Shown: positions 2,076 to 47,063 of the stretch, in pieces
Numbering within the stretch: the stretch's first letter is position 1
Layout of the letters: every line of letters starts with the position of its first letter
From: a virus
Length of the DNA: 48,239 nt
IMG/VR virus record: IMGVR_UViG_3300032053_000126
Span: 1 to 48,239 of that record
Strand: one strand, 5' to 3'
Translations under genes and position numbers: made by a program
The notes under the pieces: model-generated
Told to the model about the DNA's origin: nothing
What the model saw: only the letters and a program-made list of their open reading frames with translations
Databases searched by the model: none

Positions 2076-2912
2076 TTACCATTGATATATGTTATATTGA
2101 AAACCTACACCTATTATAAGCGCCGTTTTAGCTTCTAAAACATTCCACCCTAGAGATACATTAGGTCCAATTCCAAAACCTGAGAACCAGTGTCGTTTTT
2201 TTATCAAATCTTTAAAAAAGGGATTAGTTGAGGGATCTATTAAAACACCTTCCATTTGGGCTACAGTAAATCCTGGATAATTGCTTTGTACAAATACTCT
2301 TAATTGTTTTTTCTCTACTTTTTGTCCCCAAGTTAAATCTATTTGAGTCAATCTTTTTATTAATTCAGTATCAACATGAAGTAATTCAAGAGGATTTTTA
2401 TTTCCAATTTTAATATATGTTTTTCCAGTAAATACATCAAAATTAGTTGAATCATACTTATAAGTTAACGACCAAGGAGCAGCATAAGTATTTTCATCTA
2501 CTTTTAAAAGTTTTTGAATTATTTTATCTTTTTCTATAAGATATTTTTTTAATGTTGATGAATCTTGTTGAAGCTGAACTATTACATGATTAAGTGAAAT
2601 AATTTTTCCTTCTTGTCCTTTAACTCTTTCCCATAAATCTTTATTGAGAGTTTTAAGTTCTTTTTCTGTTGCAATATAACCAGCAATTGAAACTAAAAGT
2701 TCACCATTTTTTGTACGTTCATAATGTAAAGAATCATTAAGTGCAATAATATTTTGTTCACTTATGTTCGCTTTTCTTTTTAATTCATTAATTCTTGAAC
2801 ATTGCATAATGTTAAATACCACTAATCCTACAACTATTAATGCTATAAATATTTTACTTTTTATAAAGTTCCATATTTTTGTCCAATCTAATTTTTTAGT
2901 TTCATTTACCAT
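2076..2912 (-). CDS. Membrane-anchored coiled-coil protein with beta-type C-terminus (spanin-like candidate)
   Basis: This 278-residue protein has a short basic N-terminus and one hydrophobic segment at about residues 20-38 (FIALIVVGLVVFNIMQC). A long heptad-rich helix follows (about 40-135), then a beta-rich domain. The last 35 residues alternate Gly with aromatic and aliphatic residues (FSGFGIGPNVSLGW, then IGVGFQYNIYQW) and end in Trp, like an outer-membrane beta strand. An inner-membrane anchor, a periplasm-length coil and an outer-membrane-like end together suggest a bridge between membranes, as spanins form during lysis. It resembles a group of Bacteroidota phage proteins with the same layout, but I cannot confirm homology. 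No endolysin or holin is visible nearby. A tail-associated membrane protein is the alternative. Confidence 0.6.
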   Translation of the reverse strand: MVNETKKLDWTKIWNFIKSKIFIALIVVGLVVFNIMQCSRINELKRKANISEQNIIALNDSLHYERTKNGELLVSIAGYIATEKELKTLNKDLWERVKGQEGKIISLNHVIVQLQQDSSTLKKYLIEKDKIIQKLLKVDENTYAAPWSLTYKYDSTNFDVFTGKTYIKIGNKNPLELLHVDTELIKRLTQIDLTWGQKVEKKQLRVFVQSNYPGFTVAQMEGVLIDPSTNPFFKDLIKKRHWFSGFGIGPNVSLGWNVLEAKTALIIGVGFQYNIYQW

Positions 2913-2916
2913 ATTA

Positions 2917-4671
2917 TTAAGTATTTACTTGTGTTATATCAACGTGTGTGGATACTTCAGGTGTTGCAGTTAAATAAACGTTAAATTTAGCTGTTCGTAC
3001 TCTTCCATCAGTATTAGTAGTAGCACTTAAAGTAAATGTATCTGTACCAATTGGGCCACTCATATTATCAGACGTAAATTCACTCTTATCATCATATGCA
3101 CCAGTTGCTAACATTTCACCAGTCCATCCACTAGTAGTTTCAACTGACCAATCACTAGGTACGGGAGATTGAGCAGTTCCATTTTTATTAAATATTTGAT
3201 GATGTCCACCCGGTGTTATAGTAACATGACTAACTGTAGTTCCTGGTTGTGAAAAATAAACTGTCTTAGATGCTGTTCCAGCTTGGGCTTTTATACCTAT
3301 AGATCTAAATGAAGAACCAGTATGTTCTGAAAGTAAAATAGATGCATCATGTGTAGTCCATGCGATTGATGGTCTTGCATTTCCTGTAATAGGATTTGAT
3401 GGAACTATTGTAGCCCAAGAAATTCCATATCCTGCATCTTCTTTAGATAATTCAAATGTAGAATAATTGGTTGATACATCAAAATTAAATTTAGCTGTAC
3501 CTGTACCTGTAGATGAACATTCTATTGTTGTAGAAGGATTAATAATGCCTTTCACACTTACGTCTAATTGTGGAATTACTCCAGGATAAATAAGTAGCCT
3601 ATTTGTTTCTCTTTTCCATCCATCTTTTATTACTTCAATATACGTATGATAAGATTTTCCTAATGTTAATCCTGTTATTAATACAACACCACTTGCGTCT
3701 ATATTTCTTAATATTAAAGATGATGGATTTGCAACGATAAATCCAGTTGTTGTATTTTTAATTGTTTCATTTTGATATAAATATAAATCTCCTTTTATAG
3801 TAGCTGTATCATATGTACCAGCAATATCATATAAATCCCAATATATAGAGACTTCTGGAACAGCTCCACCGGTAGCATCAAATCTAAATGTAGAAGGATT
3901 ATTGTTAAAAACAGGATCAAGCAAATTATTGATTTTCATTTCATAATTAGTTAATATTGTGCCTTCTGTTGTTACTGTATTAAAATAATTACTAGCATCT
4001 TTTGTCACAGTTAATTCATAAAAATCTAATATTAAATTAGTATCACGTGTTTTTCCAGATGCATCTAAATTCCCTAATCTAAAGTTTTTTGTATTAATGT
4101 CTCTTACTAACGCAATAGAATTGTTATTATCTATCCCTGATGTAAATAATGTAAATGGGTGATAACCTCTATTTTCAGATTCTATATTTGAAAATTCAAT
4201 TCTTCCATAATTTACTGGTTTAATTCCGTAAACATCTGCTGGATATTCAGTATATTCAGTTACAGTTTTACTAAATATTGAATCAATTATAAGATATGTA
4301 TTAATATATTGATTAGAATATCTTATTATATCAATATCATTTGGAACGTCATATAAATCAAAAAGTTCTGCTGCATTAAGATAATATCCAGTATATGCAT
4401 ATTTAGAAGTAAGATTTAAATCAATCTTCCAAACTTTTCCTTGTTTATCAACAAAGGTATCACCTGTTTGATAATGTCTGTTTTCGGGAAGTGATGTTGC
4501 ACTTGTCCATAAAATAATATTTCCCGTAATTCTAGAAGTTATAGTTGTCCCATCCTCATCTCCATTCAAATTAGTGAAATACATACTAAGTCCAGTAGAA
4601 CCATCAGTCCCATTGTTACCCTTAGTTCCATATCCTGGCATTCCAGGAGCATATTGAAATTTTGAACTCAT
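2917..4671 (-). CDS. Fibre or baseplate-decoration protein with short collagen-like N-terminus and Ig-like domains
   Basis: A 584-residue protein. Residues 8-28 are Gly-rich (PGMPGYGTKGNNGTDGSTG), a short collagen-like stretch. Residues about 45-100 hold a domain with WTSATSLPE and GDTFVDKQGKVWKI, often seen near the attachment end of fibres. The rest consists of several beta-sandwich-like segments. The C-terminal 200 residues (TTIECSSTGTGTAKFNFDVS, later GTDTFTLSATTNTDGR) read like bacterial Ig-like repeats. It sits between the spanin-like gene and the 1545-residue gene in the minus-strand structural block. An A/T-rich TATATAAATAAAA motif lies 1 nt before its ATG. The exact virion position is unknown. 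Confidence 0.65.
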   Translation of the reverse strand: MSSKFQYAPGMPGYGTKGNNGTDGSTGLSMYFTNLNGDEDGTTITSRITGNIILWTSATSLPENRHYQTGDTFVDKQGKVWKIDLNLTSKYAYTGYYLNAAELFDLYDVPNDIDIIRYSNQYINTYLIIDSIFSKTVTEYTEYPADVYGIKPVNYGRIEFSNIESENRGYHPFTLFTSGIDNNNSIALVRDINTKNFRLGNLDASGKTRDTNLILDFYELTVTKDASNYFNTVTTEGTILTNYEMKINNLLDPVFNNNPSTFRFDATGGAVPEVSIYWDLYDIAGTYDTATIKGDLYLYQNETIKNTTTGFIVANPSSLILRNIDASGVVLITGLTLGKSYHTYIEVIKDGWKRETNRLLIYPGVIPQLDVSVKGIINPSTTIECSSTGTGTAKFNFDVSTNYSTFELSKEDAGYGISWATIVPSNPITGNARPSIAWTTHDASILLSEHTGSSFRSIGIKAQAGTASKTVYFSQPGTTVSHVTITPGGHHQIFNKNGTAQSPVPSDWSVETTSGWTGEMLATGAYDDKSEFTSDNMSGPIGTDTFTLSATTNTDGRVRTAKFNVYLTATPEVSTHVDITQVNT

Positions 4672-18273: not shown

Positions 18274-21033
18274 TTAAGTTAAATCACCAAATAATGTCCA
18301 AGGATCTCCTGTAATAGTGTAAGCACTAGCAGCTCCATATAAATCTATTATATTTACAGAAGAATCTCTTGAACGAATAGTTACTCCATCGCTTCCATCA
18401 AATGTTAAAATACCGGCTCCCGTATTAACAAAAGTTACTTGAGCTTTTACTATATTTGATGGTAAATAACAGATTTTATCACTTCCTGAACTAAATTCTA
18501 TTATTCTATTATTATCAGCTTGAACTACAATATACTGTGTGCCTGATTGTAAATTAACAGAAGCTTCTAATGCGCTTTGAATACCTTGTATTCCTTGTGA
18601 ACCTTGAATTCCTTGAATTCCTTGTCTACCTTGTATTCCTTGAACACCTTGAACACCGCCACTTGGATCTACTGAACTAACATCTGCATAAAATATTCTT
18701 CCCCACATAGGATCATATTTAACAACATAATCATATGTATTATTTTTAGGTAATCCATTAATAAATTCTGTATTTTCTTCAGAAAATTTAATACCTGTCG
18801 TACCACCAGTTAATTCTAAATAACCTTGTCCTTTAGCACTTATTATAAGATTTACATCAGTTTCTATTCCTGCAGTACTTACATAAAAATTTTCACCGGC
18901 ATGAGAAGGATCTCCAAAATAAACATCTCTATTTTCAATACTACCTTCACCTGAAGAAATATAAACAGGGCCTGCATAATTTTCACCACCCATATCTGCA
19001 CCTTTTAGATATAAAGCTGAACCATCTTTAATAGGTTGTATTAAACTAGTTGTAATTTTAATATCTTCAATATTAGTTGAACCAGAAATACTCCAAATAT
19101 TACTACCTAATAAGTTTCCTGAACCATCAAATATTGGAACATTACCAAGAGAACCATTTGTAGTACCTACTCCTTCACTTACTTCAAGATAACCTAAATC
19201 CCAATAAAAATCTGTTCCTAATGATGCATTAGGAAGAAATAACGTATACGCATTAATAGTATTATTTAACGATGCATTAATAGCAGCTATACTATTATCT
19301 TGAACTATTTGCCATGCATATAAATCATTTATTGATGCATCTGTAACTCCTGATCCTGAAATTCCTTGAGTTCCTTGAGATCCTAAAATTCCTTGGGTTC
19401 CTTGAATACCTTGAGCAGCATAAAGTCCATCCCATCCTTGAATTCCTTGAGTACCTTGAATACTTTGAATACCTTGAATACCTTGTGTTCCTTGAATACC
19501 TTGAGCATCCCACATTCCACGTAATCCTTGAATACCTTGAATACCTTGAATACCTTGTGTTCCTTGAATTCCTTGTGTTCCTTGAATTCCTTGTGTTCCC
19601 TGAATTCCTTGTGTTCCCTGAATTCCTTGACTACCATCTAATCCTTGTATACCTTGTATTCCCTGAATTCCTTGTGTTCCCTGAATACTTTGAATACCTT
19701 GTATTCCTTGAGTACCATCTAATCCTTGTATACCTTGTATTCCTTGAGCAGCATAAAGACCAGCTAATCCTTGAATACCTTGAATACCTTGAATACCTTG
19801 ATTACCATCTAATCCTTGTATACCCTGAATTCCCTGAATACTTTGAATTCCTTGTGTTCCTTGTGAACCTTGTGTTCCTTGTGAACCTTGAATACCTTGT
19901 ATTCCTTGAGCAGCATAAAGACCATCTAATCCTTGAATACCTTGCATTCCTTGTGAACCTTGAATTCCTTGAATGCCTTGAATACCTTGAATACTTTGAA
20001 TACCTTGTGTTCCTTGTGAACCTTGTGTTCCTTGTGAACCTTGAATTCCTTGAATACCCTGAACTCCTTGACTACCAATAGGACCTTGATCTCCTTGATC
20101 TCCTGTTGTACCAATTGGTCCATCAAATCCTTGTGTTCCTTGAATTCCATCTTCTCCTTGAATTCCTGTAAGTCCTTGAATTCCTTGTCTTCCTTGTATT
20201 CCTTGAACACCTTGTCTACCTTGAATCCCTTGTATTCCTTGTAAACCTTGTAAACCTTGAAGTCCTTGTAATCCTTGTGTTCCTTGTGAACCTTGAATTC
20301 CTTGAGTTCCCTGAGTTCCTTGAGCTCCTTGAATACCTTGAATTCCTTGAGTTCCAGAAGCACCCTGTGATCCTGATAAACCAAGAGATACCATTGTGGA
20401 AGGATCATTAGCACCATATCTATATTGCATCCAAGTAGATCCCCATGAAGGATCGTATGCTATAGTTATAAATTCTCTATAAGCTTCTCCTGCATCACTA
20501 GGATCAACTACATATTTTAATCCAAATGTTGCAGAAGTAGGAACAGGATCTAATAATATTTCAAAATTATTTGTTCCAACCAATGAAACGTCACAATATA
20601 TACCTACTACTTTTGATAAAGTATCATTTCCTAATTCTATGGTATTTGCATTATTAATTTTATAATATGGTAGAAGAACGTCAATATGTTTATATGATGG
20701 ATTTTCATAAGGCCAATTATCTGCTGCTGTACATGCATCTCTTCCTATCATTACTGGATCAATGTACATTTTATACCAGTTATAGTCTGCTGTATTACTA
20801 TTTTCGTATAGATTAGTCCATTGATTTTTAACAATTAAATTATCTGTTACAGTTGTCACAAATTCACCAGTCGCCCCCTTTACTCTTCCGGGTGTATTTA
20901 TTGGAGCTATAACTATATTAAGATTTTCATTATAAATAATATCAAGATATCTCTTAAAAGCCTGATTATTATAGTTAATAATATAAGGCAATTCGGTGAT
21001 AAAGGTACTCTGATAAACTGTTGCAAATTCCAT
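18274..21033 (-). CDS. Collagen-like tail fibre
   Basis: A 919-residue fibre. Residues 1-215 form a globular head (MEFATVYQSTFITELPYIIN), probably the virion-attachment end. Residues about 220-560 are Gly-x-y collagen-like triplets, mostly GIQ, GTQ, GSQ and GLD, with Gln dominant at y and almost no Pro. The register is kept but Gly is replaced at regular places: Ala in several copies of GLYAAQG, Ser in repeated GIQSIQG. After a 230-residue beta-rich segment, a second short collagen stretch (about 790-820; GVQGIQGRQGIQG) leads to a C-terminal domain with SGSDKICYLPSNIVK and TFVNTGAGILTFDGSDG, a beta fold common at phage fibre ends. It is the first gene of the minus-strand block, opposite the S1 gene. 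Host adhesion is inferred. Confidence 0.85.
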   Translation of the reverse strand: MEFATVYQSTFITELPYIINYNNQAFKRYLDIIYNENLNIVIAPINTPGRVKGATGEFVTTVTDNLIVKNQWTNLYENSNTADYNWYKMYIDPVMIGRDACTAADNWPYENPSYKHIDVLLPYYKINNANTIELGNDTLSKVVGIYCDVSLVGTNNFEILLDPVPTSATFGLKYVVDPSDAGEAYREFITIAYDPSWGSTWMQYRYGANDPSTMVSLGLSGSQGASGTQGIQGIQGAQGTQGTQGIQGSQGTQGLQGLQGLQGLQGIQGIQGRQGVQGIQGRQGIQGLTGIQGEDGIQGTQGFDGPIGTTGDQGDQGPIGSQGVQGIQGIQGSQGTQGSQGTQGIQSIQGIQGIQGIQGSQGMQGIQGLDGLYAAQGIQGIQGSQGTQGSQGTQGIQSIQGIQGIQGLDGNQGIQGIQGIQGLAGLYAAQGIQGIQGLDGTQGIQGIQSIQGTQGIQGIQGIQGLDGSQGIQGTQGIQGTQGIQGTQGIQGTQGIQGIQGIQGLRGMWDAQGIQGTQGIQGIQSIQGTQGIQGWDGLYAAQGIQGTQGILGSQGTQGISGSGVTDASINDLYAWQIVQDNSIAAINASLNNTINAYTLFLPNASLGTDFYWDLGYLEVSEGVGTTNGSLGNVPIFDGSGNLLGSNIWSISGSTNIEDIKITTSLIQPIKDGSALYLKGADMGGENYAGPVYISSGEGSIENRDVYFGDPSHAGENFYVSTAGIETDVNLIISAKGQGYLELTGGTTGIKFSEENTEFINGLPKNNTYDYVVKYDPMWGRIFYADVSSVDPSGGVQGVQGIQGRQGIQGIQGSQGIQGIQSALEASVNLQSGTQYIVVQADNNRIIEFSSGSDKICYLPSNIVKAQVTFVNTGAGILTFDGSDGVTIRSRDSSVNIIDLYGAASAYTITGDPWTLFGDLT
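19360..20380 (-). repeat. Collagen-like triplet repeat tract
   Basis: About 1 kb of 9-nt-based repeats (plus-strand words such as CCTTGAATA and CCTTGTGTT) encodes Gly-x-Gln triplets. The low complexity produces long shadow frames in the other readings, which are not genes. Slippage and unequal recombination would change the shaft length here. Confidence 0.9.
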
Positions 21034-21152: not shown

Positions 21153-22382
21153 ATGTCACTAATAACAAATGAAATTTTCAATTGGGATATATATGAAGAC
21201 GGGTACACTGGAAGTACTAAATTAATTCCAAATAAATCAATTAATGGTAATGATTTAAAAAATAAGTGTTTTTCTAGAGAATCTTATGCTCAACATCTTT
21301 TTGATATCTATACCAATCAAGATACAGATCTAATTAAAAAGGATTTTAATAAAGGAGATTGTATTAAAATAATAGACATATATAATATTAAAGATACATT
21401 TATTGATGCACAATTAGCAGGAGGCTTAACTGTTTCTGTTGATATAGAAAAAGAGAAAAAATTCATTCAAGTATTTGGATTTAATAATGTTAAAGATTTT
21501 ACTGCAACTTTAAAAAATAAAGATTATTTACAACAACTTCTTAAAAAAGGAATAAATGCATTCATTATTGAATCTACACCTTCAGTAAAAATATCATTAT
21601 GGCAAGGACATTTAAAGGCAGTTAGAGATGAATTTATATGTCAAATTAATAATCCAACAGAAGCATATAAAGCTAAAATTATAGAAGCTAATAAGGGTGG
21701 ATTCTTTGTTGAAGTACAAGGAATTGAAGCATTTATGCCAGGATCATTAGCAGCAGCAAATAAAATTGTAGATTTTCAATCATATATTGGTAAAGAAGTA
21801 GTAGTAATGATTGAAGATTTTATAAAAGAAATGAATTCATTTATTGTTTCTCATAAAAAATATTTAGTACATATACTTCCAAGTAAAATAGCTGAATTAT
21901 CATTAATGGATAAATATGCTGGTGTTATTACAGGTGTTTCAAAATATGGAATATTTATTGAATTTAATGAATTATTTACAGGATTACTTCACATATCTAA
22001 AATGGATGAAGTAACTAAAAAAATATTTAGTGAGAGATTAATTAAAGCTGGAAATTCTATTGAATTTTATATAGCAGAAATAACTAAAGATCGGCGAATA
22101 ATTTTAACAAATGAAAATCCAGAAAATAAACTTAAAAAATTTCAAGAATTTATTCTTAATTCTAAAGATAAAATATTTAAATCAAGTGTAGCAGCAATAA
22201 TGAATTTTGGTATTATTGTTTCAATAAATGATTTATCTGGTTTAATTCCTATTTCAGAATTTAAAAAAAATAAAGTGATGATGAATAATTATATTGTTGG
22301 AGAAAAAATAAATGTTATTTTTGATAAATTTGAGAATGAAAAATTAGTATTTAAACTTGTGAATATAAAAGAAGTTAGTTAA
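21153..22382 (+). CDS. S1-domain RNA-binding protein (ribosomal protein S1-like)
   Basis: A 409-residue protein with tandem OB-fold S1 motifs. Domain A at about residues 171-245 has AKIIEANKGGFFVEVQGIEA and FMPGS. Domain B at about 255-325 has AGVITGVSKYGIFIEFNELF then GLLHISKM, the most canonical copy. Domain C at about 343-405 has FGIIVSINDLSGLIPISEF. A more diverged S1-like segment may lie at 65-110 (KGDCIKIIDIYNIKDTFIDA). Bacterial S1 binds mRNA leaders on the 30S subunit. This copy is shorter than host S1 (usually six domains). It opens a plus-strand operon that continues into tagged and virion-type genes. It may favour translation of phage mRNAs lacking Shine-Dalgarno sites, or be a virion or RNA-protection protein. 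The fold is clear; the role is inferred. Confidence 0.8.
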   Translation: MSLITNEIFNWDIYEDGYTGSTKLIPNKSINGNDLKNKCFSRESYAQHLFDIYTNQDTDLIKKDFNKGDCIKIIDIYNIKDTFIDAQLAGGLTVSVDIEKEKKFIQVFGFNNVKDFTATLKNKDYLQQLLKKGINAFIIESTPSVKISLWQGHLKAVRDEFICQINNPTEAYKAKIIEANKGGFFVEVQGIEAFMPGSLAAANKIVDFQSYIGKEVVVMIEDFIKEMNSFIVSHKKYLVHILPSKIAELSLMDKYAGVITGVSKYGIFIEFNELFTGLLHISKMDEVTKKIFSERLIKAGNSIEFYIAEITKDRRIILTNENPENKLKKFQEFILNSKDKIFKSSVAAIMNFGIIVSINDLSGLIPISEFKKNKVMMNNYIVGEKINVIFDKFENEKLVFKLVNIKEVS

Positions 22383-39900: not shown

Positions 39901-41055
39901 ATGGCAATAAAACACCTTACACCCAAATCAAGAGAAGAAATACAATCAGCAGTATTAGATAGTCCGGCTTCATTAGAAAAAATTAATTTACTTAATAGTA
40001 ATTATATTGAAGTTACAAAAGAAGAAGCTCTTCAATTAGTTGATGAACTTCCAATTTATGAAAAATTAAGATTTGCATTAAAAGTAAACAATGTTGAAAT
40101 AGTTAAGAAAATTCTTGATACTAGTTGTAAAAGTATAACTCCTGCTAAAAGAATTATTACGTATTTTAATAAAGACGATAAGCCTGTAACTGCAATAACA
40201 TTTAATCAATTAGATGAAATTCTTACATGGGCCTTTAAATATAAGCAAGATGATATAATAGAATATATTAAAAAAAATCTTAAAAAAATTGTTAAAGACA
40301 TCACGTCATTCGAAAGAATACAATTTGCAATGCATGTGAATGATATGGCTTTAATAAAAAAATATATCTATGATGTTGACAAGAATAAATTACAAACTTT
40401 TGAAGCAGAAGCTATTTTAAGATGGATTGTTGCAAATAATCACGATGATATTTTATCTAATCTTATTAAAAAAATAAAAATTTCAGAATTTAGAGAAGAT
40501 TATCTAAGACTTATTATTCAAAAAATTATCTTTCAACCTGCAAGTGAAAAAATGGTTAGAATGATGTTAGATGCAGGTATGGATGTTCATATGGATATGG
40601 ATTATCCTTTAGTTGAAGCTTGTAATATGCAAAAAATTAATTTAGCTAAGTTATTAATAGAATATGGAGCAAATATACATGCGCAAGGCGAAATATGCTT
40701 AAGAAATGCGTGTATAATGGGAAATATAGAAATTATTAAAATGCTTTTACATTTAGATGCTGATATACATGCAGAAAATGATGAAGCATTAAGACTAGCT
40801 GCGGCTAATGGACGAACAGAATTAGTTAAGTTACTTATTGCTGCTGGCGCAAATGTAAAAGCACATAATTATTTAGCTATTTATTGGGCAGAATATAATC
40901 GACATACAGAAATTGTAAATATACTAAAAGCTGAACAAACAAGAATTGAAGAAACTAAAAGACTTATAAATCTAGCGAAAAATGAGCAAAAGAGACATAG
41001 CAAAACCAAAACAAAAAGAAAAAATTATAAGACTTCCAATATCGAAATTCATTAG
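39901..41055 (+). CDS. Ankyrin-repeat protein, tag without its prosegment
   Basis: A 384-residue protein from the ATG at 39901: MAIKHLTPKSREEIQSAVLD. A GTG at 39874 would add nine residues with no better start signal. The N-terminal half has degenerate helix-pair repeats (LPIYEKLRFALKVNNVEIVK, TSFERIQFAMHVNDMALIKK). The C-terminal half has clear ankyrin repeats: LLIEYGANIHAQGEICLRNA, MLLHLDADIHAENDEALRLA, AANGRTELVKLLIAAGANVK. The tail is Lys-rich. Ankyrin repeats bind proteins. The start is Met plus exactly the residues that would follow cleavage of the NE/AIKHL tag. The gene's 3' end overlaps the antisense HNH gene by 4 nt. A host-directed binding protein is a reasonable inference. Confidence 0.8.
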   Translation: MAIKHLTPKSREEIQSAVLDSPASLEKINLLNSNYIEVTKEEALQLVDELPIYEKLRFALKVNNVEIVKKILDTSCKSITPAKRIITYFNKDDKPVTAITFNQLDEILTWAFKYKQDDIIEYIKKNLKKIVKDITSFERIQFAMHVNDMALIKKYIYDVDKNKLQTFEAEAILRWIVANNHDDILSNLIKKIKISEFREDYLRLIIQKIIFQPASEKMVRMMLDAGMDVHMDMDYPLVEACNMQKINLAKLLIEYGANIHAQGEICLRNACIMGNIEIIKMLLHLDADIHAENDEALRLAAANGRTELVKLLIAAGANVKAHNYLAIYWAEYNRHTEIVNILKAEQTRIEETKRLINLAKNEQKRHSKTKTKRKNYKTSNIEIH

Positions 41056-41831
41056 TTTATGTTCATTTTACAATTAATACCATGCCATTTTTTATAATTC
41101 ATTTTATCTATTAATTTATTACAATGCATACATAATTGTTTTGGAGAATTTTTATTTCGTTCACTGAGTTGTTTTCTTTGTTCAATAGTACGTTTTTTTC
41201 CTTTATTAGCTTTACTAATTTTATTTTTTTTAACTTGACTACATATTTTACCTCGTGATCCATCTCCTATTTTCTTTTTCCATTCTGCAGAAAGTTTTTT
41301 TCCTTTATTTGGCGATATTTTTCCTTTATGTGATTCACTTAAATGTATTTTATGTTCGATGGATAGTTTTTTTCCTATTTTTTTATTTCTCATTTTTAAT
41401 TTTGATTGAATATTATGATGTTTTCCAAACATAGGATGATCCTTTCCTTTTTGAATATATTTATGCGCATTTTTCATTTTAATTTTTGTTTCTTCAGAAA
41501 CTGGAATTTCGCATATTAATATTTTAATTTTTTCATATGTTCGTGCTGATATTTTATATAAATTAAATTTAATGGAATGTTGAAATCTTCTCAATGCTAA
41601 TCGCATACCTCTATTATTAGGATATATGCGTGTTAATAATAAATGACAAACAAAATGTTCTCTTGTAGTTAATAAAACTAAATTATTTTTTTCATCTGTT
41701 CCATTTAAATTTTTGGGAACAATATGATGGCACTCATAATATACATAATTTGAGTCTGATTTATTTAATTTTTTGCGATTATCTTTTTCAGAGTTATTTA
41801 TTATGTTATTGTAAATTTTTAAATAATTCAT
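41052..41831 (-). CDS. HNH homing endonuclease with NUMOD3-type repeats
   Basis: A 259-residue protein that appears intact. The HNH core is at about residues 30-70: YYECHHIVPKNLNGTDEKNN then LVLLTTREHFVCHLLLTRIY. Beyond residue 115 there are at least four DNA-binding NUMOD3-like units (HPMFGKHH, LSESHKGKISPNKGKKLS, SKANKGKKRTIEQRKQLSE). A C-terminal CxxC finger (CMHCNKLIDKMNYKKWHG, then INC) is shared with the degraded GIY-YIG frame at 26855-27307. It is encoded antisense between the ankyrin gene, whose stop it overlaps, and the topoisomerase gene, from which it diverges. It probably targets a nearby conserved gene such as the topoisomerase locus. Confidence 0.85.
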   Translation of the reverse strand: MNYLKIYNNIINNSEKDNRKKLNKSDSNYVYYECHHIVPKNLNGTDEKNNLVLLTTREHFVCHLLLTRIYPNNRGMRLALRRFQHSIKFNLYKISARTYEKIKILICEIPVSEETKIKMKNAHKYIQKGKDHPMFGKHHNIQSKLKMRNKKIGKKLSIEHKIHLSESHKGKISPNKGKKLSAEWKKKIGDGSRGKICSQVKKNKISKANKGKKRTIEQRKQLSERNKNSPKQLCMHCNKLIDKMNYKKWHGINCKMNIN

Positions 41832-41890: not shown

Positions 41891-42436
41891 ATGAAAAATA
41901 TAGGAAAAAATACTAATAAGAAATCGGAACGAATAATTAAATTGTGTATTTCGAAATTCATTGATACAAAATTTCGAGATTATGCATTATATGTCCTTAC
42001 TAGCCGAGGGATCCCTTCGTTTTATGATGCGTTAACTCCTGTTCAAAGATATATTCTTAAAAATACTCCTTCATCATTCGTTAAAACTTTAACTGTAGTA
42101 GGAAAAGTCATACAAGACGGCTATCACCATGGAGATTGTCTTGATGGAAACACAAAAATTAATTTAGCTGATAATACTCAAATAACTATTAGAAAATGGT
42201 TTGAAGAATATCCAGATGCTATTTTAATGATTAGATCTATTGATGAAAATGAAAATGAAGTGATAGGTATAGGTCATTCTCCACGTATAGGTCAAGAAAC
42301 AAATGACTATCTTGAAATCGAATTAGAAAATGGAGAAATTATAAAGTGTACCAAAAACCATCCATTTTTAGTAAATGAAAAATGGATTAAAGCAGAAGAT
42401 TTAAAAGAAAATGATGAGTTATATACATTAACTTAA
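41891..42436 (+). CDS. 52: DNA topoisomerase II subunit gp52-like, N-terminal part fused to an intein N-half
   Basis: A 181-residue product. Residues 1-82 match the start of the GyrA/gp52 breakage-reunion domain: FRDYALYVLTSRGIPSFYDA, LTPVQRYIL, VVGKVIQDGYHHGD. At residue 83 the topoisomerase stops, exactly before the expected Ser of HGDS, and an intein begins: CLDGNTKINLADNT (block A) and GEIIKCTKNHPFLVNEKWIK (block B with TxxH-like KNHP). The protein ends 99 residues into the intein. The rest of the topoisomerase is encoded at 42732-44039 behind the intein C-half. The two products should join by protein trans-splicing into about 478 residues, near T4 gp52 size. The HNH gene diverges upstream. 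Confidence 0.85.
   Translation: MKNIGKNTNKKSERIIKLCISKFIDTKFRDYALYVLTSRGIPSFYDALTPVQRYILKNTPSSFVKTLTVVGKVIQDGYHHGDCLDGNTKINLADNTQITIRKWFEEYPDAILMIRSIDENENEVIGIGHSPRIGQETNDYLEIELENGEIIKCTKNHPFLVNEKWIKAEDLKENDELYTLT
42137..42433 (+). other. Split intein, N-half (IntN, 99 aa)
   Basis: IntN starts with Cys1 (TGT at 42137-42139) in CLDGNTKI and runs to the stop codon. Its length is close to the roughly 100 residues of known split IntN pieces. Block B is CTKNHPFLV. The insertion point is inside the conserved HGD/S motif of the topoisomerase. Confidence 0.8.
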
Positions 42437-42731
42437 TATTTTACGCTAGTGGTTATAGAAAATATCATAAAAAATGTGAAATATGTAGAAAAGAAATTTT
42501 TATTCAAGCAAGAACATGTAAAAAATGTGCATACGAGTTAAGAAAACAAAGTTGGAAAAAAACGTGTAATTCAGAACATAATTTTTTAAAAATTCTTCTT
42601 CACGAAAACAATGGGAAAATAGATTATTAAATAAGAAGGAATAATAAATGTTTGGCAAAGAAAAGAAGTAAAAGAAAAAAGTAAACAGACATTAAAACAG
42701 AAATATAATAATGATTATCAAAATTTTTTAG
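42437..42731 (+). pseudogene. Decayed homing-endonuclease remnant between the split intein halves
   Basis: This 295-nt stretch has no intact gene but shows coding-like pieces in different frames. One piece (about 42445-42630) reads ASGYRKYHKKCEICRKE and then TCKKCAYELRKQSWKKTCNS, a four-Cys finger. Another (about 42584-42644) reads SSRKQWENRLLNKKE. A third (42647-42760, overlapping the next start) reads NVWQRKEVKEKSKQTLKQKY, a phrase typical of phage homing endonucleases of the Vsr-like type. Several frameshifts separate them. The best reading is a dead endonuclease that once mobilised the intein. Confidence 0.6.
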
Positions 42732-42848
42732 ATGAAAATAAAATCAATCAAACTAATTAAATCAGATATACCAATAAAATTTTATGATATAACAGTAGAT
42801 GATTATCATAATTTTTCTATTAGTAATACTAATATTATAGTTCATAAT
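42732..42848 (+). other. Split intein, C-half (IntC, 39 aa)
   Basis: IntC begins at its own ATG and ends with Asn at 42846-42848, followed by Ser (TCT) as the first C-extein residue. Key features are the conserved YDI-x-V and the His-Asn terminus. Its size is like natural IntC pieces of about 36-40 residues. Confidence 0.8.
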
Positions 42849-44039
42849 TCTTCTATTATTGGCGCAATTAATAAATTAGCACGCCCATTTGGTAATGCAA
42901 TACAAATTTTAAATGGTTATGGATTCTTTGGAAGTGAGGTATCTCCTTCACCTGCATCACCCAGATATACATCTGTTAAACTGTCTCCAACAGCTAATGG
43001 AATACTTAATAAGTACAATCATTTAACGACAAAGGAATCAGAAGGTCCTTATGATGATTTATGGATGGATATTCCATTAGGATTAACCTCACCTATTGTA
43101 GGTATTGCCGTAGGATATAAAACTACAGTTCTTCCAAGAAGACTTAAAGATATTCAGGAATTTCTTGAAGGAAAGCGTAAAAATCTCAAACCTTATTTTG
43201 AAGGATTTAGTGGTACAGTAGAAAAATATAAAGGAATAGATAAATCATGGTTTATTTCATCAACATTTGAAATTGACAATAAACGAATAATGATTCATGA
43301 AATCCCGCCAATTTTAAAATATACAACGGTAATAAAAAAACTTGATTTTTTATTCAATAAATTTGAAGGCAATATTCGTATTATTAATAATTCTAATACA
43401 AAGGTGAATATTGATATTGTTTATACTGGAAAATCAAAAGAAGAATGGGAAGAAATAATAAGCTTTATTAAAAGAATATTTTCTATTATTGTTACAGAAA
43501 ATCCTGTATTTATTAAAGATGGTCAGGTTCTTGTTTATGATTCTGTTGAACAATATTTAGAAGATTATAAATGGCAAGTTATAAGATTAAAATATAAAAA
43601 CACCGAATATGAGTTTAATGAATTAACTTTTGATTTAAAATTTAATGAAGCCAAATTCAAATTCATTACATGGATACTCCAAAAACAGAGAACAGATGAA
43701 GAAGTTACAATCTGGTTAAAACCATATAAACAAGACATATGTGAAAAACTTGAAAGATTAACATCAAGAAAATTTACTACAGATGAATTATTTGCAACTA
43801 CTAGTACAATACGAAGGCTAAAAAATGAATTAAAATTTAAAACCAAAGAACTTAATGATTTTTCAAAGGCTTTCTTAAGTTTAATTGATCCTACATTAAC
43901 TCGTAGTATAGGTTCCAAGAAAAATTTAGTTAATTTATTTGAAATTCAAGATATTCAAGATGTAGATGGAGTAACTATATGGCAAGGTGATGATGTATAT
44001 GAAGAAATAGAAAAAGAAGAGACTGATGAAGATGAATAA
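42732..44039 (+). CDS. 52: Intein C-half fused to the C-terminal part of DNA topoisomerase II gp52-like subunit
   Basis: A 435-residue product. Residues 1-39 are an intein C-half (MKIKSIKLIKSDIPIKFYDI, then DDYHNFSISNTNIIVHN), with block F (FYDITV...HNF) and block G ending His-Asn. Residue 40 is the +1 Ser. From there the topoisomerase resumes: SSIIGAINKLARPFGN, then GYGFFGSEVSPSPASPRYTS with the active-site Tyr in PRYT (Tyr79 here, about residue 122 after splicing). The C-terminal two thirds include a long coiled coil (about 360-390) and an acidic tail (EEIEKEETDEDE). It cuts and rejoins the gate DNA strand in the phage type II topoisomerase. The ATPase subunit is not in the window. Confidence 0.85.
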   Translation: MKIKSIKLIKSDIPIKFYDITVDDYHNFSISNTNIIVHNSSIIGAINKLARPFGNAIQILNGYGFFGSEVSPSPASPRYTSVKLSPTANGILNKYNHLTTKESEGPYDDLWMDIPLGLTSPIVGIAVGYKTTVLPRRLKDIQEFLEGKRKNLKPYFEGFSGTVEKYKGIDKSWFISSTFEIDNKRIMIHEIPPILKYTTVIKKLDFLFNKFEGNIRIINNSNTKVNIDIVYTGKSKEEWEEIISFIKRIFSIIVTENPVFIKDGQVLVYDSVEQYLEDYKWQVIRLKYKNTEYEFNELTFDLKFNEAKFKFITWILQKQRTDEEVTIWLKPYKQDICEKLERLTSRKFTTDELFATTSTIRRLKNELKFKTKELNDFSKAFLSLIDPTLTRSIGSKKNLVNLFEIQDIQDVDGVTIWQGDDVYEEIEKEETDEDE

Positions 44040-46494: not shown

Positions 46495-47063
46495 TCATTT
46501 TGATTTATTACGTTTTATTGTTTCACGTAATTTTAATTTAGCTATCTCATTCATAGGAATACCTTTATTCCATGTAGTTTTTCCCTTTTTAGCATTACTC
46601 ATTTGCAATAATGTTTCCTCAGAATATGGATTCTTTTTATTTTTATTCCAGGGTATTTTTCCTTTATGGCTTTTACTAAGATTTAATTTCCATGATTCTG
46701 GAGGAGGCGCATGTTTTTTACCCAACATAGAATTGCTTTGTTTTTTTCTTGTTTCTTCTGAGTGGCATTCTCTTACGCCCAAACCTCCTTTAGGACTTAT
46801 ATTATATCCATTTGAACTAATGTATTATACTGAATAATGTATTTTTCTTGAGCATTAAAAGCTTCTTTTTTAGTTTCAAAATTTTCTAAAATTTCCTTTT
46901 TAAAATATATTTTTCCATATTTTTTAATAGCAGCATTTAAATATGATCCTCCTCCTAAATAATTATCTTTTTCTATATTATCTGTACTATGGTCTCCTAC
47001 ATATTGTTTTCCATTAATAGTATTAGTAGTAATGTAAACGTAGGTAAATTTCTTTTCTTTCAT
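46495..47063 (-). pseudogene. Frameshifted GIY-YIG homing endonuclease with NUMOD3 repeats
   Basis: Two frames that belong to one gene. The first (47063-46797) has the GIY-YIG domain: TYVYITTNTINGKQYVGDHS, KKYGKIYFKKEIL, and the conserved Glu region AQEKYIIQYNTLV. It then runs into a stop after QMDII. In a shifted frame the usual continuation NGYNISPKGGLGVRECHSEE is present, joining the second frame (46782-46495) with NUMOD3 units (KSHKGKIPWNKNKKNPYSEE, GKTTWNKGIPMNE). A one-base deletion near 46822 explains it. The catalytic half may still be made without its DNA-binding half. It lies between the tagged operon and the clamp gene. Confidence 0.8.

What the first reader, a model, noticed from the sequence alone, without database searches (positions are those of the whole stretch)
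41891..44039. A topoisomerase gp52 gene broken by a split intein
The N-half ends in a 99-residue IntN that starts with Cys1 after ...HGD. The C-half begins with a 39-residue IntC ending His-Asn, followed by Ser and the rest of the topoisomerase. Both intein pieces have the size and blocks A, B, F and G of natural split inteins. The split falls inside the conserved HGDS motif, so no active enzyme can form without trans-splicing. The arrangement is like the 'fractured genes' described from environmental phage data, where split inteins flank an endonuclease gene.
Basis: partly seen in the sequence, partly recalled or inferred. Interest (0 to 1): 0.85.

Follow-up and report, generated by a model that had tools for sequence, protein, structure and literature searches.

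The report
Split-intein phage topoisomerase, dead homing endonuclease
In this phage a topoisomerase gene is cut in two and its halves carry matching pieces of a self-splicing protein that should stitch them back together; the DNA-cutting gene that once sat between them is now a dead remnant, so the locus appears to preserve what is left after such a mobile element decays.

Summary
Confirmed. A gp52-type topoisomerase is encoded as two ORFs: 82-aa N-extein + 99-aa IntN (41891-42436) and 39-aa IntC + 396-aa C-extein (42732-44039). Profiles identify both intein pieces and both topoisomerase halves. No second copy exists in the 48-kb record, or in related records of 429 and 462 kb.

Eighteen further distinct viral loci carry an intein at the same site: six with an intact HNH-like endonuclease, one frameshifted, two more remnants, eight whose endonuclease shares the N-terminal ~135 aa but ends in an unrelated EDxHD/Vsr-like nuclease, and one contiguous mini-intein. 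Intein-free relatives are interleaved with carriers. Several intact endonuclease genes start inside a hairpin with a late-promoter-like loop, as in T4; the window lacks it.

Best reading: a natural split intein left after endonuclease decay in a 'fractured gene', still needed to trans-splice gp52. Splicing is inferred, not shown. The arrangement is a known kind; the decay series and nuclease swap at one site are the informative part.

The parts
41891..42136 (+). N-extein: gp52 residues 1-82, ending YHHGD (equivalent of E. coli GyrA up to Asp82, from knowledge of GyrA numbering)
   Evidence: PF00521 4.5e-5, phrog_551 1e-14, PRK12758 5.5e-8
42137..42433 (+). IntN, 99 aa, Cys1, block B CTKNHP; stop codon 42434-42436
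   Evidence: TIGR01445 1.9e-10, PF14890 1e-8, residues tabulated
42437..42731 (+). Remnant of a homing-endonuclease gene: start, leader and nuclease domain deleted, frame broken
   Evidence: 228 of 290 aligned positions identical to the L003 endonuclease region, shuffles 143-164; tblastn pieces at 42457-42591 (E 1.5e-20), 42582-42632, 42647-42691 and the tail 42698-42757
42732..42848 (+). IntC, 39 aa, own start codon (MKIKSIK), block F FYDITVDDY, block G IIVHN
   Evidence: TIGR01443 8.2e-7, PF14890 7.8e-4; MKIKSIK-like start in all split relatives
42849..44036 (+). C-extein: gp52 residues 83-478, +1 Ser; stop codon 44037-44039
   Evidence: PF00521 1e-25, phrog_551 1e-36, profile match to T4 gp52 8yo3 2.8e-33
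42966..42968 (+). Codon of the presumed catalytic Tyr (C-half residue 79, in PRYTSV), 39 residues after the +1 Ser as in E. coli GyrA Ser83/Tyr122
   Evidence: Aligned with the RY of T4 gp52; invariant R78 Y79 in alignment A2; GyrA numbering from knowledge

Best explanation
The two ORFs make two precursors, gp52(1-82)-IntN and IntC-gp52(83-478). IntN and IntC associate into one class-1 HINT domain (Cys1 first nucleophile, block-B His, terminal His-Asn, +1 Ser acceptor) and splice in trans, joining Asp to Ser inside the HHGD/S motif and giving a 478-aa topoisomerase medium subunit. The split arose when a free-standing homing-endonuclease gene lodged at the usual endonuclease site of a mini-intein. 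The endonuclease spread the unit between phages at this site and then decayed. In the window it is dead, but the gene has stayed in two pieces because the split intein still restores the protein. Shown: sequence features, conservation, low dN/dS, the remnant, patchy distribution. Inferred: association and splicing, past homing, and the order of events.
For: Profile matches to both intein pieces and both topoisomerase halves. Splicing residues conserved in all 18 split loci. dN/dS of window against three relatives 0.16-0.28 for IntN and 0.11-0.35 for IntC. The same two-ORF layout, with an intact endonuclease between, in L003, L012, L017, L019, L020, L021, L023-L026, L028, L029, L054, L108. The window gap aligns to that endonuclease. 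No other PF00521 gene in the record or in related records up to 462 kb. Intein-less relatives are interleaved with carriers: a clade of window, L003, L011 and L012 is rejected by extein data, p-AU 0.0003.
Against: No splicing was observed and none can be with these tools. The record is a 48-kb fragment, so an intact copy elsewhere in this genome is not excluded. Homing is inferred: the synonymous-site test was largely explained by AT-rich codon use and the co-conversion test was inconclusive. An Asp at -1 is not a generally favoured N-extein residue (from knowledge), although it is conserved here because HHGD is.
Confidence: 0.87

Rival explanations
1. It is a contiguous intein with an endonuclease that only looks split, because of sequencing or assembly errors or because the whole gene is decaying.
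For: The gap does hold frameshifts and deletions, and one relative, L027, has a contiguous intein at the same site.
Against: Seventeen distinct relatives show the same two separate ORFs, most with an intact endonuclease ORF with its own start and stop between. IntC starts with its own conserved Met. Both halves are open and under purifying selection. The N-half stop is conserved in position.
Confidence: 0.03
2. The two halves assemble without splicing, as with split NrdA of phage Aeh1, and the intein pieces are inert leftovers.
For: Phage enzymes that work in pieces after endonuclease insertion are known (PMC2988022).
Against: All catalytic intein residues are conserved in 18 split loci and the intein pieces have low dN/dS, which inert tails would not. 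The break is inside the conserved HHGDS motif beside the active site.
Confidence: 0.07
3. The split came first, without any endonuclease, and different endonucleases later invaded the gap independently.
For: Two unrelated nuclease domains occupy the same gap in different clades. L018 is split with almost no endonuclease left.
Against: Both endonuclease types share the same N-terminal ~135 aa (46% identity, hhalign E 1e-36), which points to one ancestral endonuclease whose nuclease domain was exchanged. L018 and L128 keep endonuclease remnants (E 1e-13 and 4e-5). The contiguous L027 is nested among split loci, so it is no evidence for an older contiguous state.
Confidence: 0.15

Closest known systems
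'Fractured genes' with split inteins and a free-standing endonuclease (Dassa et al. 2009, doi 10.1093/nar/gkp095; text not held, recalled)
   Same: A phage replication-type gene broken by a split intein at the usual endonuclease site, with an endonuclease gene (here a remnant) in the gap; control elements come with the endonuclease in relatives.
   Different: The window's endonuclease is dead. In its clade the intact ones are HNH-like, not Vsr-like; the Vsr-like kind is in the sister clade. Whether gp52 was among the genes of that paper could not be checked.
Split PolB intein with HNH endonuclease in Pseudomonas phage MIJ3 (PMC6892783)
   Same: Split intein with an HNH endonuclease ORF between the halves; a contiguous mini-intein at the same site in another jumbo phage (Salicola SCTP-2).
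   Different: DNA polymerase B instead of topoisomerase; endonuclease reported as a gene, not a remnant.
Natural split inteins gp41-1, NrdJ-1, IMPDH-1
   Same: IntN about 88-105 aa and IntC about 37-40 aa, Cys1 and His-Asn (recalled); NrdJ-1 is the best, though weak, PDB match of IntN (E 0.054).
   Different: Sequence similarity is weak; other host gene and insertion site; activity measured there, not here.
T4 and Aeh1 genes in pieces (gene 39/60 with mobA, nrdA with mobE; PMC2988022)
   Same: Phage replication gene broken by a homing endonuclease; endonuclease start held in a hairpin with late promoter, as in several relatives here.
   Different: No intein: the pieces work unspliced. In T4 the broken topoisomerase subunit is the large one, not gp52.

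Membership tests
Natural split intein (class 1) | Cys (or Ser) at position 1, block-B TxxH, terminal His-Asn, Ser/Thr/Cys at +1 | tested here: met
   Window: C1, CTKNHP, VHN, Ser+1; the same in 17 relatives
Natural split intein (class 1) | Match to intein N- and C-terminal profiles | tested here: met
   TIGR01445 1.9e-10, TIGR01443 8.2e-7; PF14890
Natural split intein (class 1) | Two separate ORFs, break at the usual endonuclease site (about 100 + 40 aa) | tested here: met
   99 + 39 aa in separate frames with own start and stop; typical sizes in PMC12707363
Natural split intein (class 1) | Protein trans-splicing activity | not testable with these tools
   Needs co-expression
Fractured gene (Dassa 2009) | Conserved enzyme gene broken by a split intein | tested here: met
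   PF00521/phrog_551 on both halves
Fractured gene (Dassa 2009) | Free-standing endonuclease gene in the gap | tested here: not met
   Window holds only a remnant without start or nuclease domain; intact in 14 distinct relatives. Hence a decayed derivative, not a full member
Type IIA topoisomerase medium subunit (gp52) | Catalytic Tyr in RYT and collinear match to PF00521 | tested here: met
   Tyr at C-half residue 79, aligned with T4 gp52
Type IIA topoisomerase medium subunit (gp52) | Only copy in the genome | tested here: inconclusive
   No other copy in the 48-kb fragment; none in related records up to 462 kb
HNH endonuclease (endonucleases of the window's clade) | DH...N...N..K core and HNH profile match | tested here: inconclusive
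   DHK(Y/F)S...N...N..K...C pattern invariant in 4 proteins, but no Pfam HNH match and a poor model, pLDDT 53
EDxHD/Vsr-like homing endonuclease (sister clade) | Vsr-type motif and profile match | tested here: inconclusive
   Motif-like I(I/V)E(F/Y)xG..(W/F)H stretch in L017, L021, L023-L025, L028, L029, variant in L026; named from the motif only

The most novel reading that the evidence does not exclude
One homing site in phage gp52 preserves the life cycle of a split intein: fracture by an endonuclease gene, exchange of its nuclease domain (HNH-like for EDxHD-like) on a kept DNA-binding module, loss of the endonuclease while the gene stays split and dependent on trans-splicing (window, L018, L128), and re-fusion to a contiguous mini-intein (L027). 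The origin and fate of split inteins would then be testable at a single locus.
Probability: 0.5. Interest if true: 0.65.

Novelty: new member of a known kind. Interest (0 to 1): 0.48.

Why it matters
How natural split inteins arise, and why genes stay broken once the endonuclease is gone, is an open question. This locus and its 18 relatives show intact, frameshifted, remnant, nuclease-swapped and contiguous states between the same two residues of the same gene, so the steps can be compared and tested. They also add candidate split inteins for protein-ligation work.

Tried and rejected
Synonymous sites as proof of recent intein transfer: intein codons are more often identical than extein codons between window and L003 (p 0.002), but much of this is AT-rich codon use, so it is not used as proof. 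Co-conversion around the insertion (L003 against intein-less L016): a slight dip near the junction only, inconclusive. AlphaFold of the HNH-like endonuclease: pLDDT 53, so no fold search. AlphaFold of contiguous L027: pLDDT 68; the listed Foldseek matches are topoisomerases, so the intein fold was not confirmed by structure. The scan of bacterial genomes found no bacterial copy of the IntN + gp52 unit: two hits to IntN stretches in cyanobacteria and one to an extein. Rfam and tRNA scans of the window gave nothing. Dassa 2009 is not held, so its gene list could not be checked. The repeated TATAAAATAAAA element is not above chance with one mismatch allowed. The idea that the upstream NUMOD3/HNH endonuclease (41052-41831) now mobilises the locus was considered; different endonucleases lie there in relatives and nothing tests it.

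Full report
OBSERVATION. The window holds two ORFs, 41891-42436 (181 aa) and 42732-44039 (435 aa). The first runs through a topoisomerase N-terminus to ...YHHGD and continues as a 99-aa IntN. The second opens with a 39-aa IntC ending ...IIVHN, followed by Ser and the rest of the topoisomerase (396 aa). NCBIfam gives TIGR01445 (1.9e-10) and TIGR01443 (8.2e-7) for the intein pieces. Pfam gives the intein splicing domain for both pieces and PF00521 for both exteins. PHROGs gives phrog_551, topoisomerase II, for both. The C-half profile aligns to T4 gp52 (8yo3, E 2.8e-33) with RY on RY. The Tyr is 39 residues after the +1 Ser, the spacing of Ser83 and Tyr122 in E. coli GyrA (from knowledge), so the break corresponds to GyrA Asp82/Ser83.

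IS THERE AN INTACT COPY? The 48,239-base record has no other PF00521 match, but it is an IMG/VR fragment. In 16 related records, including LR756500.1 (462 kb) and a 429-kb contig, the same search finds one topoisomerase gene each, as N and C parts or as one gene, and no extra copy.

RELATIVES. Direct scans gave L003 (80% N-half and 69% C-half identity), L011 and L012, and intein-less L013-L016. LR756500.1 came from the phage collection. Profile scans gave more. A census of the fetched loci found 141 without an intein at this site and 40 with one, many of them the same contig fetched twice. After removing duplicates and near-identical contigs there are 19 carriers including the window. Split with intact HNH-like endonuclease: L003, L012, L019, L020, L054, L108. 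Frameshifted: L011. Remnant: window, L018, L128. Split with intact EDxHD-like endonuclease: L017, L021, L023, L024, L025, L026, L028, L029. Contiguous 144-aa intein: L027. The splicing residues are present in all 18 split loci and in L027. dN/dS between the window and three relatives is 0.16-0.28 for IntN, 0.11-0.35 for IntC and about 0.2 for the C-extein; N-extein synonymous sites are near or at saturation.

THE GAP. The 295 nt between the halves match L003's endonuclease region at 228 of 290 aligned positions (78.6%); shuffled gaps give 143-164. Relative to L003 and L011 there is a 5' deletion that removes start and leader, small deletions that break the frame, and a large central deletion that removes the nuclease domain. 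Translated searches find the zinc-finger part and further pieces in other frames. L018 keeps only the endonuclease tail (E 1e-13 to L019's) and L128 only the head (E 4e-5 to L017's).

NUCLEASE SWAP. The HNH-like and EDxHD-like endonucleases align over ~135 N-terminal residues (46% identity, hhalign E 1e-36) and not beyond. They sit at the same site in two distant topoisomerase clades. The names of the nuclease types rest on motifs; profile and structure tests were inconclusive.

CONTROL ELEMENT. In several loci the endonuclease start codon lies in the 3' arm of a hairpin whose loop holds a TATAAATA-like element. The hairpin stands out from shuffles in L054 (z -8.9), L019 (-5.1), L108 (-4.8), L017 (-4.0), L011 (-3.6) and L025 (-3.2). 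It is weak or not significant in L003, L012, L020, L021 and L128, and absent in the window. T4 endonucleases are controlled by such hairpins and late promoters (PMC2988022). Function here is inferred, and AT-rich DNA makes the loop motif easy to meet by chance.

MOBILITY. Extein data reject a clade of the four window-clade carriers (window, L003, L011, L012; p-AU 0.0003) and reject window + L003 (p-AU 0.0003), while the intein tree pairs window with L003 (93/90, below the starred level). L003's extein sister is intein-less L016 (96/99). This supports gain or loss by mobility. The synonymous-site and co-conversion tests were inconclusive. The contiguous L027 is nested among split loci, so re-fusion is the simpler reading, though the root is arbitrary.

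PRIOR ART. Fractured genes are known (Dassa 2009; text not held). A split PolB intein with an HNH endonuclease is reported in phage MIJ3 (PMC6892783). The searches of the held papers gave none on a split intein in gp52; that does not show absence from the literature.

VERDICT. A real natural split intein in phage gp52, best read as a decayed derivative of the fractured-gene arrangement. It is of a known kind; its value lies in the graded series of states at one site.

Noticed in passing
window 41052-41831 (-): A complete-looking NUMOD3 + HNH homing endonuclease (phrog_655, E 2e-37) runs away from gp52, ending 59 bp before its N-half. Intein-less L015 has a GIY-YIG-like endonuclease at the same flank (3244-3954) and L012 has one nearby (2698-3525), so this gene seems to attract such elements.
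   Followed up: partly
L017 4240-4974 and L024 2404-3126: The topoisomerase large subunit (TOPRIM part, phrog_543 1.9e-57 for L017) also begins with an IntC-like stretch ending in HNS, so both subunits of the same enzyme look fractured in these phages.
   Followed up: partly
window 46495-46782 (-): A 95-aa NUMOD3-repeat fragment (8.4e-8) without a nuclease domain, perhaps another decayed endonuclease.
   Followed up: no
window 21153-22382 (+): A 409-aa phage protein with three S1 RNA-binding domains (PF00575 1.4e-24).
   Followed up: no
window 39874, 44546, 45270, 45647, 46132 (+): Several neighbouring ORFs of different length begin with near-identical short N-termini (like MKAKxVNEAIKHLAP) and then differ.
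   Followed up: no
window 15653, 21043, 22400, 26386, 36125: Five exact TATAAAATAAAA copies, most just upstream of gene starts; possibly a late promoter-like element. Not above chance when one mismatch is allowed.
   Followed up: partly
window 18274-21033 (-): Collagen-like tail fibre, 919 aa (PF01391 1e-51).
   Followed up: no
L014 3956-5410: An intein-less gp52 with HHGPN in place of HHGD at the insertion site, possibly a variant resistant to homing.
   Followed up: no
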